Assembly (NCBI GenBank): GCA_017456285.1
Contig: JAFTJQ010000002.1
Coordinates: forward strand, 1 to 55,174
Source: Lentisphaeria bacterium
GTDB lineage: Bacteria; Verrucomicrobiota; Lentisphaeria; Victivallales; Victivallaceae
DNA: 55,174 nucleotides
Direction of reading: 5' to 3'
In this document: positions 8,731 through 16,363 of the stretch, piece after piece
Numbering within the stretch: position 1 is the first letter of the stretch
How the letters are laid out: the number at the start of each line of letters is the position of its first letter
The notes under the pieces: model-generated
Told to the model about the DNA's origin: nothing
Seen by the model: only the letters and a program-made list of their open reading frames with translations
Databases searched by the model: none
Position numbers and translations under genes: made by a program

Positions 8731-8785
8731 AATTCACTCTATCAATTTTGTATATTATTAATTCTCATAATCCTTTATCAAGCGG

Positions 8786-9158
8786 AATCAGTGCAACTAT
8801 AAGCCGGATTTTGTATCCGCACGAGGCGGACGGCAATCATCTATCTATGCGACCAGAACCCGAAATTCAAGCGTTACGAGCAGCAACTCATTTCCTATTT
8901 GGTCTTGCTGCGAAAGGGGTTTGCCTGAGCGACAGGGCTTACACTTACTGCCCGGTGGGCTCTTACCCCACCTTTTCACCCTTACTCGCACCTTTTGCAA
9001 GGCACAAGCGGTATCTTCTCTGTGGCACTTTCCTTCCGGCGGCTTATTGTCCGCCGTATCCTTTTCAAAAATCAAAGGACTTCCTGCTCTATGCAGTCCG
9101 GACTTTCCTCTCACATTGAAAAAATCAACATGAACGATTGCCCGTTGCACCAATATCC
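8786..9158 (-). ncRNA. rnpB: RNase P RNA (bacterial class A)
   Basis: Read on the minus strand the sequence holds the universal P4 core GAGGAAAGTCCGGACT (near 9097-9112) and, at the 3' end, ACAAAATCCGGCTTATAG. In between come GCCACAGAGAAGATACCGC, AGGGTGAAAAGGTGGGG and TAAGAGCCCACCGG, all standard RNase P landmarks. The ends pair as P1: GTGCAAC (9144-9150) with GTTGCAC (8791-8797). P2 pairs GGCAATC with GATTGCC. The RNA processes the 5' ends of tRNAs. Ends are approximate to within a few bases. Open frames on either strand here are not genes. Confidence 0.96.
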
Positions 9159-9262: not shown

Positions 9263-10150
9263 TTAATCCAAAATACAAGGCACCCCGTCAGCATCTTCAC
9301 CGAAGCGGTAGAGCTTCATGCGTTCAAGCGGACGGTCATTCGGCTGGTGCAATGAAAGATAATACTGTCCGTCAAAGTTCTTGAAAATTCCGCAATGTCC
9401 GCCGTTTGCTCCGAAAAGCGGCTTCTCAAGCTGAGTCCATTCGCCGTCAAGTTTACCATTGCTGCTGACTGCAATACCGACAGTATAACCGCCGTCACCC
9501 TTGCTTGACCAAAGCATATAGAGTTTGCCATTGCTGCTTTGATACATACAGGGGCCGTCGGTAATGTAGCAAGGATATTTTGCTCCATTGTTTGAACTGA
9601 TTGCACGGCACCATGAAGCATCCGTAGCAGAGAACATCAATCTCGGATTGCCGCAGGCTTTTTTCAAATCATCAGTCAATGGCACATAACACATTGTACC
9701 ATCACAAACTTGCAGCCACTCGTGGCAGAAAATCATATAGGGTTTACCGTCTTCAAAATACAAAGTTCCATCCAGACACATCCAATGCTCCGGAGTTACA
9801 GGCCCCTCTGACCACATTTTATATTCGCCATCGGGAGTGTCTGATACTAAAACATAAGTTCCACGATAATCGCCCTCGCGATTAATTGTGCCGAAAAGAT
9901 AATACTTCCCATTGTAAGCATACATTTCCGGTGCCCAATACTCAAGGGTATCTGCCATATCAGGAGTTGGAGTGTAGATAGTTTTTGCTTCACTCCAGTG
10001 GATTAAGTCCTCACTCACATAGACAACGAAAATCACATTGTAATCGGCATTAGTTCCGGTTAAATAATATTTGCCGTTGTGCGGCATGATAAACGGATCT
10101 CTGATTCTAATGTCATCAGCGGTCAACGGATATTTAGTTAAATCTGTCAT
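9263..10150 (-). CDS. Glycoside hydrolase family 43 (beta-xylosidase/arabinosidase type)
   Basis: A 295-residue single-domain five-bladed propeller enzyme. The catalytic base Asp18 sits in IRDPF at the start of blade 1, followed by the GKYYLTGT, WAPEMYAYNGKYYLFG, LDGTLYFEDGKPYMIF and ITDGPCMYQSSNGKLYMLWSS motifs. The last has Asp where many GH43 enzymes have the acid Glu before GP, a variant seen in some subfamilies. No signal peptide, so probably cytoplasmic and acting on imported oligosaccharides. It starts 11 bases after the ADP-ribosylglycohydrolase-fold gene, forming a two-gene operon. Exact sugar specificity cannot be read. Confidence 0.88.
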   Translation of the reverse strand: MTDLTKYPLTADDIRIRDPFIMPHNGKYYLTGTNADYNVIFVVYVSEDLIHWSEAKTIYTPTPDMADTLEYWAPEMYAYNGKYYLFGTINREGDYRGTYVLVSDTPDGEYKMWSEGPVTPEHWMCLDGTLYFEDGKPYMIFCHEWLQVCDGTMCYVPLTDDLKKACGNPRLMFSATDASWCRAISSNNGAKYPCYITDGPCMYQSSNGKLYMLWSSKGDGGYTVGIAVSSNGKLDGEWTQLEKPLFGANGGHCGIFKNFDGQYYLSLHQPNDRPLERMKLYRFGEDADGVPCILD

Positions 10151-10161
10151 TATAAAACTCC

Positions 10162-11634
10162 TTATTTGTTTAAGTTTTTATTATTATCTCTATCAAATGC
10201 ACCCAAAATGAACTTGTATTCATGGTTGGCAAGGCAGAAAAACAGCGGTGTTGAAGTCTGCTCCTCATCGTAGGGAGAGAGAGCTATTGACAAATTATAG
10301 GTGCCTTTTTTCATAAACATACGCAAATTCTGGTTAATGTGCGGACGATTAGTTGACGGAACAAAATCGCCTCTTGACTGACCGAATTGCAGTTCATCAT
10401 TAAGCCACACCAGACAGCGGCAAGTCGCCGCCACGATAAAGGCATAACGTCCGTCATAAGGCACTTCCATTTTCATCTCATAAATACGGAAACTATCGCC
10501 CTCAAGATCACTTAAATCGACATCCCAAGTCAAATTACCCTTGAAAGTCATATCGCTAAGTTCGATTGCATTAATTTTGTCACGGGAAATATCCCCTCTG
10601 GACTTCGGTACAGAGACACCCGTTTTGGCATGAATTTCAAAATCTTTCCAAACAGGCTCAATCGGCATTGAGTCGTCACAAACAATTTTGCCCTGCCATG
10701 CCATAATTAAATCAGTAAGCTCATCCAAAGTTGCAGGCGGATTAATTCCGGTAATCTCTTTACTTACCACCAAATTTCTGCCGATCGGCTTAAGCCACTG
10801 CTCCTCAATTCCGTCGGGATTAATAATTCCCAAAATCGCACCGACAGTTGCCGCAGTACAATCCGCATCACGTCCGCAATTATTTGCCAGACAGATTGAT
10901 TTACCGAAAACTCCCTTGCCCAAAATCAATGCCATAATCATAAACGGAATATTCATTACCACATCGGTAAAATTCGGACTGCCGTATTTACGGATAATAT
11001 TACGGCGGACAACCAATGGGTCATCGCTTTCAGAACACCAGTTAATTGTATCTCTGACCGCTTGTGCCAAACGACTATCTGCGGGAATATACTTAAGACC
11101 TTTTTCAATTAATTGCATAATATCGGTTTCGCCGAATGCCAAACTCTCCAAAGAGGTCAAAAACATTTCAGCATAATATCCGTCACCGCAGTGGTCAACT
11201 TCGGCATCAAATCGAGCATATTTTACCGCTGTATCAGGGTCATTAGGAGCAAGGAACGCCCAAATTTCACTTCGAATTGCCGCACCTAAACCGTCACGGA
11301 AAGCATTATCATACTGTCCTGAAAAAGGCGGCAAAATTCCTTTCTCAATATTACGAATTGCTACCGCATATTCATCGACATAGAAATGTACATTATCAAC
11401 CCATGCTTTAGCGAAATTTTTTCTGGAAAGCACTCCATTCCAATCACTTGCAATTTTACAAATCCACAAAATCTGCAAATCCAAATCATCATTGGGCTGC
11501 ATTTCAGTCGGCTCGGGAGTGTATCTATCTAAATGCAAAGGTCCGCGAAGCCCTTCGCATGGCTGACCTAATGTACCGCCGACAGCTTTGCCGAACAAAC
11601 CGCCCAAAATGCGTTCTCTGATTGAAAAACTCAT
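10162..11634 (-). CDS. ADP-ribosylglycohydrolase-fold protein in a glycan operon
   Basis: About 490 residues. The N-terminal domain (about 1-330) has the ARH/DraG fold signature: RERILGGLFGKAVGGTLGQP, the metal-binding NDDLDLQILW, and NNCGRDADCTAATVGAILG, which corresponds to the GGDTDT metal site. The C-terminal 150 residues look like a beta-rich, possibly carbohydrate-binding module. ATG at 11634 is chosen because AGAAAGGAAA lies just upstream; the 30-codon extension before it is AT-rich leader. Its operon partner is a GH43. Relatives are usually annotated as ADP-ribosylation hydrolases, but partnership with a glycosidase makes a sugar substrate plausible. No nitrogenase genes are here. Confidence 0.82.
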   Translation of the reverse strand: MSFSIRERILGGLFGKAVGGTLGQPCEGLRGPLHLDRYTPEPTEMQPNDDLDLQILWICKIASDWNGVLSRKNFAKAWVDNVHFYVDEYAVAIRNIEKGILPPFSGQYDNAFRDGLGAAIRSEIWAFLAPNDPDTAVKYARFDAEVDHCGDGYYAEMFLTSLESLAFGETDIMQLIEKGLKYIPADSRLAQAVRDTINWCSESDDPLVVRRNIIRKYGSPNFTDVVMNIPFMIMALILGKGVFGKSICLANNCGRDADCTAATVGAILGIINPDGIEEQWLKPIGRNLVVSKEITGINPPATLDELTDLIMAWQGKIVCDDSMPIEPVWKDFEIHAKTGVSVPKSRGDISRDKINAIELSDMTFKGNLTWDVDLSDLEGDSFRIYEMKMEVPYDGRYAFIVAATCRCLVWLNDELQFGQSRGDFVPSTNRPHINQNLRMFMKKGTYNLSIALSPYDEEQTSTPLFFCLANHEYKFILGAFDRDNNKNLNK

Positions 11635-12041: not shown

Positions 12042-12749
12042 ATGAAAAACTTATTAAAATTCACCCTCATTGAGTTGTTGGTTGTTATCGCAATCATCGC
12101 AATTTTGGCAGGTATGCTGCTCCCCGCACTCAACAAAGCCCGTGAAAAAGCTCGTGCAATTTCATGCACCAACAACAAAAAACAGTGCATGCTCGCAGTT
12201 ACTATTTATTGTCAGGATCACAACGGCACAATGGTTATCCGTCACGGCGAAAACATGACTCCCAAAAATATCACTTGGTTCGCTCTTCTGAAAAATAATA
12301 ACTATGCAGCCAATTTGTCAGAGGCTCAATGCCCGTCAATCAGGTTCAAACCCCACAAAGATGACGACACTTATAATGGTTGCCAAACTATTTACGGTAT
12401 GCCGCGCTCTGTATCAACATGGCAGGATTATTTAGGCAAAAGCAGCTATTCAATCCCCAACAGTGCCGGAGAGGATGATTTTGCATGTATGATTAATTTG
12501 TACAACTTGAAAAATGCAAAAATGCTTATGGCGTGTACTTTCAGTAATACAAATAACTGGCAAAGTTTTGAATGGCATTTAACTTCTGATCGTGCAAATT
12601 TAGCGAGCTTTGTTCATGGCGAAAGAAATGCTATCGGCTGGAGTGACGGTCATGTAGAATCAATGACTGCAACTGCGGTTGCTGATGAATTAGAAGACGG
12701 CGGTTTCACAGGAACTTTTGCCTACTATCTTAACGGCGTCAAAAAGTAA
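12042..12749 (+). CDS. Pseudopilin with H-X9-DG C-terminus (locus 1)
   Basis: 235 residues. The N-terminus has a class III-type prepilin signal: KNLLK, then [20 protein letters not shown], with Glu at +5 after the expected cleavage. The residue before the Phe is Lys rather than the usual Gly. The globular part ends [20 protein letters not shown], where His, nine residues, then Asp-Gly match the 'prepilin-type processing-associated H-X9-DG' domain. Such proteins occur in large paralogous sets in Lentisphaerae. It is probably an inner-membrane or extracellular fibre subunit of a type II secretion-like assembly. The sialidase starts 40 bp downstream with no terminator between. Confidence 0.88.
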
Positions 12750-12788
12750 TATTTTATTCCCTCTTTTCATTTAAAGGAAAATTATAAG

Positions 12789-14504
12789 ATGAAAATAAAA
12801 AAAATACTCTATTGGGGATTATTGTGCCTTTTTTCGGCAGTTTTCGCCGACGAAAAAGATTATCCTTTCGGAACTGTTATCCTAAATGGCGGCAGAATTG
12901 AGCCAGTCAGCATGTCATTAATTGAATCCACTAATGAACACTTGAATTTTTGCTTCGCCCAAAACTTTTCGGACGGTTCAATTTATCTCCGTCACTCCGG
13001 CGGTATTCATACCGTTTCTGAATATGGGTGCCGTGACTACTCTTTGGACAATGGTGTTACTTGGCAGCGTGGGCAAAAAGGGTGTCTGGGTGGATTTAAT
13101 GCCTACGAAACACTTGATGGGAAAAAATGTCAAATTGAGTGCTGGGATAATAAAGTTTCTGATACTCATACTTTAATTCACAAAACTGCTGACAAGAACC
13201 ATATTGGTCAAGTTACAAAATCAACTATTAAACTGCCATACAAAAGTTCTTTCCGCCTGCATCGCAAAGTGCTTCGCACCAAGGATAATCGCTTGCTTTT
13301 AACGGGCTATGGCTACAAAGAAAATGCCAATAAAAATCATTCGTTTTTGATTGAATCGACCGATGACGGCAAGTCATGGCACTACTACTCAACTATTTTG
13401 GAAGACTATTCTGTACAATTTACAGAAGGCCCGAATGAAGCGGATGTAGTCGAATTAACTAATGGGGATTTTTTGGCATTTGTCCGATTGACAGCACTTG
13501 GAGACTTGGTGCAGCTTAGAAGTCGTGACGGCGGCAAAACTTGGGGAGATCGCAAAAATATTGCTCCATTCTGCGTTGCACCAATGGCACATGTGATGAA
13601 AAACGGCACCTTGCTGATTGTTTCCGGGCGTCCGGCACTTTATTTATTAATAGACTTTACCGGCACCGGAAATAATTATCAAACCTATCAAGTCTATGGC
13701 GGAAGCGGAAGTTCTTATGCTTCAATTTTGGAGACAGCCAAAGACCAAATCACGGTTGTTTATGACGAAAGCGACATTGGGGCTTGGAAAAATCTGGCTC
13801 GATTCAGCAGAATTTTTGCCGCCAGATTTAATGTCATAAAAGATGACAAACTCCTTGCTTCCAATGCAACTCACCCAAAAGCAAAAGAATATCAAGTTTT
13901 CTACTCTCCTGATTGTGGAATGGCGATTGAAAAGCGAACTAATTTTTTCTCTCACGGACTACTTCATCGCTCAAATGAAAAAGCGGCTCAAAATAATACT
14001 TGGTGGGAAATTCAAAAAATTGCCGAACGCCCATATCCAGTGTTGCATTTGGAGTTAAAGGGCGAAGCACGCCCCTACCGCTTCGCAAATTACCGTGCCA
14101 ATTTACAGGGAGTTGAACCATACTCAAAAGTCAAAATCGGTTGGGAGTTACGAGTTAATGACCATGGTACTGATGCCCCTCAGTTTCAAGTCCTTTGCTC
14201 TTTTGCTCAAACTTCAAGTTTTGCAGTTGTTGAGTTTACTAAAAACAAAATTTTATTGAAAAGCAATAATCAACCGATTGAAATCCCTTATGATTTACAT
14301 GGTAAATTTAAAGCTTTTGAACTCCACGCAGATGCAAACAGTGCAACTTGGAAGTTAGTTGACGGCACTGGTAAATTGATTTCAGAAGGCAAATTGAATC
14401 CTAACAAAAATCACTTTGACAATCGCATCCAATTCGGAGACGGGTCAAACGGTGTTGCAGGTTCAGTTGATTTGTCCTACATCGGTTATGATTTGCAAAA
14501 ATGA
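12789..14504 (+). CDS. Secreted sialidase-superfamily (BNR) protein, locus 1
   Basis: 571 residues with signal peptide (KKILYWGLLCLFSAVFA). The middle is a six-bladed sialidase propeller: Asp-box-like SLDNGVTWQ, STDDGKSWHYY and SRDGGKTWGD, an arginine-containing FRLHRKVLRTKD in the place of the FRIP motif, and EGPNEADVVELTNGDFLAFVR in the place of the conserved Glu/Arg strand. The C-terminal part (about 420-571) is a beta-sandwich ending GSVDLSYIGYD, shared with the locus 2 paralogue. Probably an exo-sialidase or related glycosidase acting outside the inner membrane; specificity is not shown by sequence. AAAGGA lies upstream. Its neighbours are a pseudopilin and an SSS symporter. Confidence 0.83.
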   Translation: MKIKKILYWGLLCLFSAVFADEKDYPFGTVILNGGRIEPVSMSLIESTNEHLNFCFAQNFSDGSIYLRHSGGIHTVSEYGCRDYSLDNGVTWQRGQKGCLGGFNAYETLDGKKCQIECWDNKVSDTHTLIHKTADKNHIGQVTKSTIKLPYKSSFRLHRKVLRTKDNRLLLTGYGYKENANKNHSFLIESTDDGKSWHYYSTILEDYSVQFTEGPNEADVVELTNGDFLAFVRLTALGDLVQLRSRDGGKTWGDRKNIAPFCVAPMAHVMKNGTLLIVSGRPALYLLIDFTGTGNNYQTYQVYGGSGSSYASILETAKDQITVVYDESDIGAWKNLARFSRIFAARFNVIKDDKLLASNATHPKAKEYQVFYSPDCGMAIEKRTNFFSHGLLHRSNEKAAQNNTWWEIQKIAERPYPVLHLELKGEARPYRFANYRANLQGVEPYSKVKIGWELRVNDHGTDAPQFQVLCSFAQTSSFAVVEFTKNKILLKSNNQPIEIPYDLHGKFKAFELHADANSATWKLVDGTGKLISEGKLNPNKNHFDNRIQFGDGSNGVAGSVDLSYIGYDLQK

Positions 14505-14548
14505 TTATTTTTGCAATATTCACTATCAAATTAATTTAAAGGAGAAAA

Positions 14549-16363
14549 ATGTTAAATAATCTAAACAATTTAATGCAAGCTATTTTGCAAAATGGTTGGG
14601 ACTACTCCATGATAATTATTTATCTTGCAGCAGTTTTGGCTATCGGTTTATACTGCTCAAGAGGCAATAAAACTGCGGAAAAATACCTTATGGCAGGACG
14701 GCAATTACCCTTTTTCGCCGTCGGCATGGCGTGCGTAATGGCGTTACTTAGTTCCGTATCGCTGGTAATGGTTCCGGGAGAAATTTACAATAACGGTCTT
14801 ACGCTGTTTTTAGTGCAAAACACTTTAGTTACTGTTTTGTCAATTCCCTGTTATCTGCTTTTTACCCGATTTTATTTTCGCCTGGGAAGTTTCACTCCCT
14901 ACGAATATCTGGAATACCGCTACGATAAAACCGTCAGAGGAGTAATCGCCGCCGCAGTTTTCTATACCAGAACGATGTATTTAGGTATGGTTATCTATAC
15001 CACAGCTAAAATTTTTGAAGCATCATTTCATTGGTCGCCGTTATTCTCAATTTTGCTGGTCGGAGTTTTCGCAATTTTCTATACCTTCAAAGGCGGTGCG
15101 ACAGCGGTTATCTGGACGGATGTACTGCAATTCGTAGTGCTTTTCGGAACATTTGCGGCAGTTATTTTTATCCTCTGTTATAAAATTGACGGCGGTGCAG
15201 TTGCTGCAGTTTCTACCGCTTTTGCTCAAGGGAAAGGAGCTCCGCAATTCCATGATCCGGACTTCTACAAAATTACTCCGTATGTTCGATTATTGTTTTT
15301 CCTGATGGTGTGGAATGGAATTATGGGGCCATTGACTACCGCATGCAGTGACCAAATCATCATCCAAAGACTTTTAAGCACAAAAAACTGGAAAGAGGGC
15401 TTCAAAGCACAGTGCGTTTCAACCGGATTCAGTGCCATATTTACATTGGCATTATGGTTTGTTGGTTTAGCAGTATTCACCTATTACCACCAAAATCCCG
15501 ATTCAGCCATCCAAGCAGGTGCCGGCGACAAAGCATTTTTCCACTTTGTTGCGACGGAACTTCCGACTCCGATTCCGGGACTGTTTATTGCGGGGATGCT
15601 GGCAGCAATTATGAGTACATTAAGTTCAGGCATGAACTCAATGGCAACCATTTGGCTTAAGGAGTTCCACGTTACATTCATCAATAAAAAACTTGATGCT
15701 TCGGGCGAAGTAAGAATTTCCAAACTTGCCACCTTGTGGATTGGTATATTTGTAATCGTTTTCGGCGTTTTACTTGAGTATTCCGGTAAATATCTCAAGC
15801 AGTCAGTTGCGGAAGTTCAAACACTTTTTATCATCTTCGGAACTGCAATCCTCCCTGCATTCCTTTTTGCCGTACTCTCAAAAAGGGCAAATTCCAAACT
15901 TATCTGGGGATTCTGTATTTATGCTTTCGGAGAGAGAATTGCCAATAATGTTTGGTACGCTTTAAGTCGTCCGGCGGTCGCTGCATGGAATGCCGACCCG
16001 AGTGTAGGTTTCGGCTGGGGCGGCAAATTACCATTTGATTGGTACGTCTATATCTGGATAATTCTCGGAGTTGCATTTGCTGTGCCGTATTTTGTTAAAA
16101 CTATCCGCGATCGCTGGTACGGTAAATTATCCGGACTTACGGCGTGTTTCTGCTTCGGAGTTTTGCAGTCGATGCTGATTTGGTATATTTACAGCAATGT
16201 TTATGTCAAAGATATTCCGCTTGAAAGAAGTTTCGCCTTTGCTTTGCCGATTGATTATATCATCGCCTTTATCGTGCTTCAATTCTGTCCGATTCAGCCG
16301 AAAGAAAAGTATCAAGGCTTAACTTTGAGTACGCTTAACGAACCTATTTTGCAGAAAAAATAA
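14549..16363 (+). CDS. Sodium/solute symporter (SSS family), locus 1
   Basis: 604 residues with about 13-15 hydrophobic helices. SSS signatures: GRQLPFFAVGMACVMALLSSVS and VPGEIYNNG in the first helices, and MLAAIMSTLSSGMNSMAT in TM8, where the Ser/Thr cluster forms the Na2 sodium site. It imports a small organic solute with Na+. Because it follows a sialidase gene, sialic acid or another released sugar is a reasonable guess (known SSS sialic-acid carriers exist), but no sialate catabolic gene is in view. A strong AAAGGAG Shine-Dalgarno precedes the ATG. Last gene of the operon, followed by a terminator. Confidence 0.9.
   Translation: MLNNLNNLMQAILQNGWDYSMIIIYLAAVLAIGLYCSRGNKTAEKYLMAGRQLPFFAVGMACVMALLSSVSLVMVPGEIYNNGLTLFLVQNTLVTVLSIPCYLLFTRFYFRLGSFTPYEYLEYRYDKTVRGVIAAAVFYTRTMYLGMVIYTTAKIFEASFHWSPLFSILLVGVFAIFYTFKGGATAVIWTDVLQFVVLFGTFAAVIFILCYKIDGGAVAAVSTAFAQGKGAPQFHDPDFYKITPYVRLLFFLMVWNGIMGPLTTACSDQIIIQRLLSTKNWKEGFKAQCVSTGFSAIFTLALWFVGLAVFTYYHQNPDSAIQAGAGDKAFFHFVATELPTPIPGLFIAGMLAAIMSTLSSGMNSMATIWLKEFHVTFINKKLDASGEVRISKLATLWIGIFVIVFGVLLEYSGKYLKQSVAEVQTLFIIFGTAILPAFLFAVLSKRANSKLIWGFCIYAFGERIANNVWYALSRPAVAAWNADPSVGFGWGGKLPFDWYVYIWIILGVAFAVPYFVKTIRDRWYGKLSGLTACFCFGVLQSMLIWYIYSNVYVKDIPLERSFAFALPIDYIIAFIVLQFCPIQPKEKYQGLTLSTLNEPILQKK

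What the first reader, a model, noticed from the sequence alone, without database searches (positions are those of the whole stretch)
9263..11634. ADP-ribosylglycohydrolase-fold gene coupled to a GH43
The metal-site motifs (NDDLD, GRDADCTA) are kept, but the partner is a glycosidase and the protein has a beta-rich C-terminal module. This argues for a sugar substrate, potentially a new glycosidase activity on the ARH fold.
Basis: partly seen in the sequence, partly recalled or inferred. Interest (0 to 1): 0.58.

Follow-up and report, generated by a model that had tools for sequence, protein, structure and literature searches.

The report
ARH-fold enzyme, probably for sugars
A bacterial gene related to enzymes that strip ADP-ribose from proteins belongs to a large, untested branch whose altered metal site and sugar-binding-like extra domain suggest that it cuts sugars instead; the glycosidase gene beside it looks like a peculiarity of this one genome.

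Summary
In detail: a 490-residue PF03747 protein (10162-11634, minus) with a beta-rich C-terminal module is followed 11 bases later by a GH43 gene (9263-10150).

The GH43 argument fails: this GH43 is absent from the 40 other window-type ARH neighbourhoods read, and ARH from 20 neighbourhoods of this GH43 type.

The sugar reading gains other support. The C-terminal module resembles PA14/GH2 beta-sandwiches of glycosidases and lectins. Relatives sit beside LacI regulators, ABC importers, dehydrogenases and assorted glycosidases; a paralogue in the same genome precedes a TIM-barrel gene, an FGGY kinase and a GH130.

The metal motifs are only partly kept. Metal Asp residues and the flap Glu are invariant in 69 of 69, but the position of ARH3 Asp34 is Gly in all 69 (D34G cripples ARH3), and the two Thr ligands are Asn (69) and Cys (61) or Ser (8). 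The Cys signature (84 domains) lies on one side of a fully supported branch, 14 canonical ones on the other.

Best reading: a cytosolic metal-dependent hydrolase of a small imported glycoside, on an ARH fold retooled away from ADP-ribose. Substrate unknown; no activity tested. The window copy is a divergent member.

The parts
10162..11634 (-). ARH-fold protein, 490 aa, PF03747 plus C-terminal beta module; ATG at 11634, stop at 10162-10164
10684..11634 (-). ARH-fold domain, residues 1-317
   Evidence: VIA-align Z about 31 to ARH3 (2.9 A over 294), 28.9 to DraG
11554..11577 (-). GGTLGQPCE: residues G20 (position of ARH3 Asp34) to E27 (position of ARH3 Glu41)
   Evidence: G20 and E27 in 69 of 69; ARH3 D34G and E41A severely reduced
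11479..11493 (-). NDDLD, residues 48-52; Asn in place of the Thr of TDD
   Evidence: N48, D49, D50 in 69 of 69; TDD in DraG and YegU
11266..11292 (-). GLGAAIRSE, residues 115-123; place of the GNGAAMR loop of DraG
10852..10875 (-). GRDADCTA, residues 254-261; Cys259 in place of the metal-ligand Thr
   Evidence: D256 and D258 69 of 69, Cys 61 and Ser 8 of 69
10222..10635 (-). C-terminal beta-sandwich, residues 334-471, like the N-terminal domain of GH2 enzymes and PA14 domains
   Evidence: PF07691 hits 1 of 69 members, E 0.0014
9263..10150 (-). GH43-type protein, 295 aa, no obvious signal peptide; nearest PDB entry 5c0p ('Endo-arabinase'); place of the general acid is Asp198, not Glu
10151..10161 (-). 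11-base gap between ARH stop and GH43 start
12042..16363 (+). Divergent genes: pseudopilin-like (12042-12749), BNR-repeat protein (12789-14504), sodium:solute symporter (14549-16363); possible source of substrate, link inferred only

Best explanation
The gene encodes a probably cytosolic, metal-dependent glycoside hydrolase built on the ADP-ribosylglycohydrolase fold. A small glycoside is imported (ABC or Na+ symporters in relatives), binds in the cleft of the helical domain next to a PA14/GH2-like beta-sandwich, and chelates a two-metal site through its glycosidic oxygen and a neighbouring hydroxyl, as ribose does in ARH3. Asp49, Asp50, Asp256 and Asp258, with Asn48 and Cys259 in the Thr positions, hold the metals. 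Glu27 takes the role of ARH3 Glu41, and a metal-bound water attacks the anomeric carbon. The freed sugar enters catabolism by dehydrogenases or by isomerase and kinase. Shown here: the predicted fold, the conservation pattern, the separation from canonical ARH, and the neighbourhoods. Inferred: that it is active at all, the metal, the substrate, the mechanism, the place of the sandwich relative to the cleft, and the location in the cell. The GH43 beside it is a local addition.
For: Model with pLDDT 95.1; ARH fold, Z about 31 to ARH3; C-terminal module like Kluyveromyces beta-glucosidase, GH31 enzymes and PA14 lectins (Foldseek E down to 7e-6) and GH2 N-domains (Z about 10). Metal Asp residues and Glu27 invariant in 69 of 69. 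Cys signature in 84 rows that form one side of a branch with SH-aLRT 100, 14 canonical rows on the other. Operon neighbours: Gfo/Idh/MocA in 8 and Zn-dehydrogenase in 6 of 85, each at most 1 of 85 in distal controls; LacI-type regulators near 16 of 80; ARH-SBP-permease-permease in actinobacteria; GH95, GH20, GH2, GH78, GH38, GH29 nearby in single cases; own paralogue with TIM barrel, FGGY kinase and GH130; Ensifer operon with carbohydrate ABC genes and two ARH.
Against: I know of no member with a measured activity. The neighbours are heterogeneous, with no fixed partner; the two closest relatives sit in a conserved stretch without an evident sugar gene (thyX-like and other genes by eye). Distal control genes are also rich in sugar-type regulators (GntR 9, LacI-like 5, ABC permease 4 of 85). 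The window copy lacks residues typical of the C-terminal module (N429 where 66 of 69 have H, Y446 where 68 have H, F475 where 64 have W). D34G cripples ARH3, so loss of that Asp could mean loss of hydrolysis. Z near 10 for a beta-sandwich is only moderate, and PA14 is a Pfam hit in 1 of 69.
Confidence: 0.58

Rival explanations
1. It is a true ADP-ribosyl hydrolase (protein, nucleic acid or free ADP-ribose), with altered metal ligands.
For: PF03747 and ARH fold; metal Asp residues and the flap Glu kept.
Against: The position of Asp34 is Gly in 69 of 69, and D34G severely reduces ARH3. The GNG of the DraG loop is G-L/M-G. No macro gene near: macro domains in 15 of 30 genomes, none on a contig of an ARH gene listed, none in the own genome. 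ART searches were empty but without a positive control.
Confidence: 0.1
2. It hydrolyses an N-riboside or nucleoside-like compound (or a nucleotide sugar) rather than an ordinary O-glycoside; the released pentose is phosphorylated.
For: ARH enzymes act at ribofuranosyl bonds. PfkB kinase adjacent to ARH in L172 and a similar gene, by eye, in L177, of 19 DDD-type loci read; an IU nucleoside hydrolase gene upstream of the LacI-ARH-ARH run in L154; E. coli yegTUV has a putative nucleoside transporter, ARH and sugar kinase, linked to ADP-glucose.
Against: YegU has the canonical signature and lies on the other side of the tree; the kinases go with DDD-type paralogues, not the window type; LacI regulators and SBP_bac_1-type importers point to oligosaccharides.
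Confidence: 0.17
3. The family is a non-hydrolytic sugar-binding or regulatory protein, as the ARHL protein of the chloroplast motor is thought to be (recalled).
For: Loss of the Asp34 position and of both Thr ligands; ARHL is the best profile match in the PDB (E 6.4e-6); the window copy has lost typical C-terminal residues.
Against: Four metal Asp and Glu27 invariant across 69 members of several phyla, which a non-catalytic protein would not be expected to need.
Confidence: 0.13
4. The pair is a specific two-enzyme unit in which GH43 and ARH attack one arabinose- or xylose-containing glycan (compatible with the best explanation, but narrower).
For: 11-base gap and shared strand; neither protein has an evident signal peptide; a BNR protein and a symporter lie divergently.
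Against: The adjacency is seen nowhere else; the GH43 has Asp in place of the usual Glu acid in 22 of 22, so even its activity is open.
Confidence: 0.12

Closest known systems
ARH3 / DraG / ARH1 ADP-ribosyl hydrolases (PF03747)
   Same: All-helical fold over residues 1-317 (Z 26-31); metal Asp pairs and the flap Glu.
   Different: Gly for Asp34, Asn and Cys for the two Thr ligands, G-L-G for GNG; extra C-terminal beta-sandwich; sugar loci instead of ADP-ribosylation loci.
E. coli YegU (yegTUV operon)
   Same: PF03747 protein in a sugar/nucleoside-type operon with transporter and sugar kinase; function untested.
   Different: Canonical GDAMG, TDD, NG and DTDT residues, 334 aa without the C-terminal module; other side of the tree.
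DDD-type PF03747 proteins with DTDC (own paralogue C27; Agrobacterium, Ensifer and Enterobacter plasmid genes)
   Same: Same Cys for Thr; sugar importers or kinases beside several of them.
   Different: Cys or Val instead of Gly at the Asp34 position and Asp instead of Asn before DD; C27 has an N-terminal extension and no C-terminal module.
PA14 / GH2 N-terminal beta-sandwich domains of glycosidases
   Same: Fold of residues 334-471.
   Different: Attached to an ARH catalytic domain; sequence similarity below Pfam's reach in 68 of 69 members.

Membership tests
PF03747 / ARH fold | Score over the Pfam cut-off and ARH fold | tested here: met
   127 bits against a cut-off of 26.2; 69 of 69 members hit; Z about 31 to ARH3
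ADP-ribosyl hydrolase (ARH1/ARH3/DraG) | Two-metal Asp ligands and the flap Glu | tested here: met
   E27, D49, D50, D256, D258 in 69 of 69
ADP-ribosyl hydrolase (ARH1/ARH3/DraG) | Asp at the ARH3 Asp34 position and Thr/Ser metal ligands | tested here: not met
   Gly20 in 69 of 69, Asn48 in 69 of 69, third position Cys 61 and Ser 8 of 69; of 14 canonical rows D in 13, T/S before DD in 13, T/S in the last place in 12, the rest gaps or another residue; effect of ARH3 mutants
ADP-ribosyl hydrolase (ARH1/ARH3/DraG) | GNG loop that binds the ADP part | tested here: not met
   G-L/M-G in nearly all window-type rows against GNG in DraG; that this loop binds the ADP part is recalled, save that S148A and G150E of ARH3 are listed as adenosine-coordinating
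ADP-ribosyl hydrolase (ARH1/ARH3/DraG) | Genomic link to an ADP-ribosyltransferase | tested here: inconclusive
   PF07357 0 of 1 genome, PF01129 0 of 30 genomes, but no control rang
ADP-ribosyl hydrolase (ARH1/ARH3/DraG) | Cleavage of ADP-ribosyl bonds | not testable with these tools
   needs an assay
PA14 / GH2-type carbohydrate-binding module | Fold and profile match of the C-terminal module | tested here: inconclusive
   Fold match clear but moderate; Pfam PA14 hits 1 of 69, not the window protein
GH43 (partner gene) | Profile match over the cut-off | tested here: met
   115.3 bits against 32.2
GH43 (partner gene) | Asp-Asp-Glu catalytic triad (recalled) | tested here: not met
   Asp18 and Asp127 kept, third residue Asp198 in 22 of 22; 3kst has Glu there in the alignment
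Glycoside hydrolase (any CAZy family) | Shown hydrolysis of a glycosidic bond | not testable with these tools
   no CAZy library on hand and no assay

The most novel reading that the evidence does not exclude
A new glycoside hydrolase class: hundreds of bacterial genes in which the ADP-ribosylglycohydrolase fold, with a Cys-containing two-metal centre and a PA14/GH2-like module, cleaves imported glycosides by metal-chelated substrate activation rather than by the usual pair of carboxylates.
Probability: 0.45. Interest if true: 0.75.

Novelty: new variant of a known kind. Interest (0 to 1): 0.5.

Why it matters
Genome annotation calls these proteins ADP-ribosylglycohydrolases, which points readers to signalling or nitrogenase control. 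If the clade acts on sugars, many such labels in Verrucomicrobiota (including Lentisphaeria), Planctomycetota and Actinobacteria are misleading, and a metal-based way to cut glycosidic bonds is missing from the carbohydrate-enzyme catalogue. The signature (G..E, NDD, DxDC, C-terminal sandwich) lets anyone pick test proteins at once.

Tried and rejected
GH43 as a conserved partner: rejected. In one search the script lost ARH in 6 of 41 loci through ORF resolution; one search recovered it in all 40 fetched loci. A single conserved partner for the window-type ARH: none found; the largest neighbour cluster (LacI-type) is in 16 of 80 loci. Neighbour tally: 84 of 128 candidates plus the window's GH43 were scanned; long or doubtful ORFs were dropped by hand, and 7 near-duplicate loci before that. 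Only 25 of 108 families were shown. Control: 85 entries, 84 different (one entered twice by mistake), from 182 non-operon candidates, of which 90 were drawn at random and 6 dropped.

Plasmid-collection relatives: 5 regions opened, of which two had no annotation. DRAT and ART searches gave no control signal. The paper library yielded no paper that assigns a glycosidase activity to a PF03747 protein; I saw listings only, except passages of three papers (PMC10434189, PMC8319183, PMC10819704). The library holds open-licence papers only, so this does not show that none exists. The tree was the quick type, had long branches among canonical rows, and was built with the signature columns in place. One search read only 2 of the 80 loci by a file-naming slip and was replaced.

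Full report
What is there. The minus-strand ORF with ATG at 11634 and stop at 10162-10164 encodes 490 residues; Pfam finds PF03747 (ADP_ribosyl_GH, E 1.5e-36) at residues 11-272 and nothing behind it. The next gene, 9263-10150, starts 11 bases after its stop and is GH43 by Pfam (E 4.4e-33); its nearest solved relative is 5c0p, deposited as an endo-arabinase (E 9e-61). By sequence alone the ARH protein hardly reaches solved ARH enzymes (TRI1 6dre E 0.044, DraG 3g9d E 0.066). Divergently transcribed upstream lie a pseudopilin-like gene, a BNR-repeat gene and a sodium:solute symporter; downstream is the RNase P RNA (Rfam RF00010, 8784-9153 minus).

Relatives. A search of 288 genomes of the phylum found matches in 110. 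A scan of GTDB genomes with a 29-member alignment gave 403 relatives, the best 80 kept, with record titles from Lentisphaeria, Kiritimatiellae and other Verrucomicrobia, Planctomycetes, Armatimonadetes and Actinobacteria. An alignment of the window protein with 68 of these (A2) was used for structure and conservation.

Structure. The AlphaFold2 model has mean pLDDT 95.1 and pTM 0.93. Residues 1-317 match ARH3 at Z about 31 (2.9 A over 294 residues), DraG at 28.9 and ARH1 at 26. Residues 334-471 form a beta-sandwich. Folded alone (pLDDT 91.1), it matches Kluyveromyces beta-glucosidase and GH31 alpha-xylosidases (in their PA14 parts, by recall) and named PA14 carbohydrate-binding domains (Foldseek E from 7e-6), and N-terminal domains of GH2 beta-glucuronidases at Z near 10. 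Pfam's PA14 model reaches 1 of the 69 members at E 0.0014. I read this as a carbohydrate-related module; that is a fold argument, not a binding test.

Active site. Four metal Asp (49, 50, 256, 258) and Glu27 are invariant in 69 of 69. But residue 20, seven before Glu27 as Asp34 is seven before Glu41 in ARH3, is Gly in 69 of 69; the Thr before the first Asp pair is Asn in 69 of 69; and the Thr after the second pair is Cys in 61 and Ser in 8. The ARH3 paper (PMC8319183, passages read) reports that D34G, E41A, T76R, D77N and D78N severely reduce activity and that substrates chelate a Mg ion through oxygens of the ribose. The GNG loop of DraG is G-L/M-G here. ARH3's own sequence was not on hand; the mapping rests on spacing, on DraG, TRI1, Thermus and M. 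jannaschii rows and on YegU.

A clade, not an oddity. Of 98 PF03747 domains gathered from fetched loci, 84 have Cys in the last place and 14 do not. On the tree these are two sides of a branch (SH-aLRT 100, length 2.72), and the Cys side splits into the window type (NDD, 49 rows, support 97) and a DDD type (35 rows, support 84). The sample was gathered with the window protein and with Pfam's best hits, so the proportions mean nothing; the separation does. All four PF03747 genes of the window's genome are on the Cys side.

Neighbourhoods. The GH43 is absent from all 40 fetched window-type ARH regions and from the 80 named loci at E 1e-20 (these overlap in part), and ARH is absent from 20 regions round GH43 genes of this type, though 42 of 288 genomes, the own one included, have such a GH43. 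So the pairing is local. What relatives do show is sugar metabolism of many kinds: Gfo/Idh/MocA in 8 and zinc dehydrogenases in 6 of 85 same-strand operon neighbours, against at most 1 of 85 in distal genes of the same loci; LacI-type regulators within four genes in 16 of 80 loci; ARH followed by solute-binding protein and two permeases in Leifsonia, Agreia, Subtercola and others (partly checked by Pfam); GH95, GH20, GH2, GH78, GH38 and GH29 nearby in single cases (3 of the 10 proteins chosen there had no hit). Among DDD-type genes, an Ensifer operon holds LacI, carbohydrate ABC genes and two ARH genes, one canonical and one of the Cys type. The own paralogue on contig 27 is followed by a TIM-barrel protein, an FGGY kinase and a GH130 phosphorylase, and a PfkB kinase adjoins one of 19 further DDD-type loci, with a similar gene by eye in a second. 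Against this, distal control genes are also rich in GntR (9), LacI-like (5) and ABC permease (4) hits of 85, and the two closest relatives of the window gene sit among genes with no evident sugar link.

Known context. E. coli yegTUV already places a PF03747 protein in a transporter-kinase operon, and a 2024 paper ties that operon to ADP-glucose and glycogen while calling the gene functions unknown (PMC10819704, passages read). YegU, however, has the canonical residues. I found no paper that gives a glycosidase activity to a PF03747 protein in ten searches (listed under Tried and rejected); most papers of subscription journals are not held.

Window copy. It is a divergent member: its branch is 0.74 against 0.14 and 0.20 for its sister pair, and it lacks His429, His446 and Trp475, which 66, 68 and 64 of 69 members have. 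A typical member is the better test protein.

Verdict. A sugar-directed, metal-dependent hydrolase on the ARH fold is the best-supported reading (0.58), the substrate being open. It is a new variant of a known kind: the fold is known, while the altered metal site, the fused sandwich and the genomic setting are not those of any characterised ARH that I know.

Noticed in passing
8784-9153, minus strand: RNase P RNA (RF00010, 207.9 bits) directly downstream of the GH43; the 123-aa plus-strand ORF 8748-9119 lies antisense to it and is unlikely to be a gene.
   Followed up: yes
9263-10150 (GH43), residue Asp198: In this GH43 subgroup the place of the general acid Glu is Asp in 22 of 22 sequences (window plus 21), also in 5c0p, so its activity is itself open.
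   Followed up: partly
12789-14504 and L163:4894-5688: The window's BNR gene has an internally deleted relative right behind another ARH gene of the same genome (contig 62): N-terminal start present, C-terminal third at 45% identity. Both ARH loci also have a pseudopilin-like gene, so a shared module may have been duplicated and partly lost.
   Followed up: partly
L162:392-8054 (G000 contig 27): Own-genome gene run ARH (DDD type), TIM barrel, FGGY kinase, GH130, a 441-aa protein and a creatininase-like gene (last two not scanned): looks like a sugar salvage operon.
   Followed up: partly
L157:6761-10082 (Ensifer sp. PDNC004 plasmid): One operon holds both a canonical-signature PF03747 gene and a Cys-type one, inside a carbohydrate ABC operon: a natural pair for comparing substrates.
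   Followed up: no
L090, L091, L094, L150: Shared operon of Gfo/Idh/MocA dehydrogenase, zinc dehydrogenase and ARH, with a PIG-L-like gene (by eye) after ARH in L094: hints at an oxidative sugar route.
   Followed up: no
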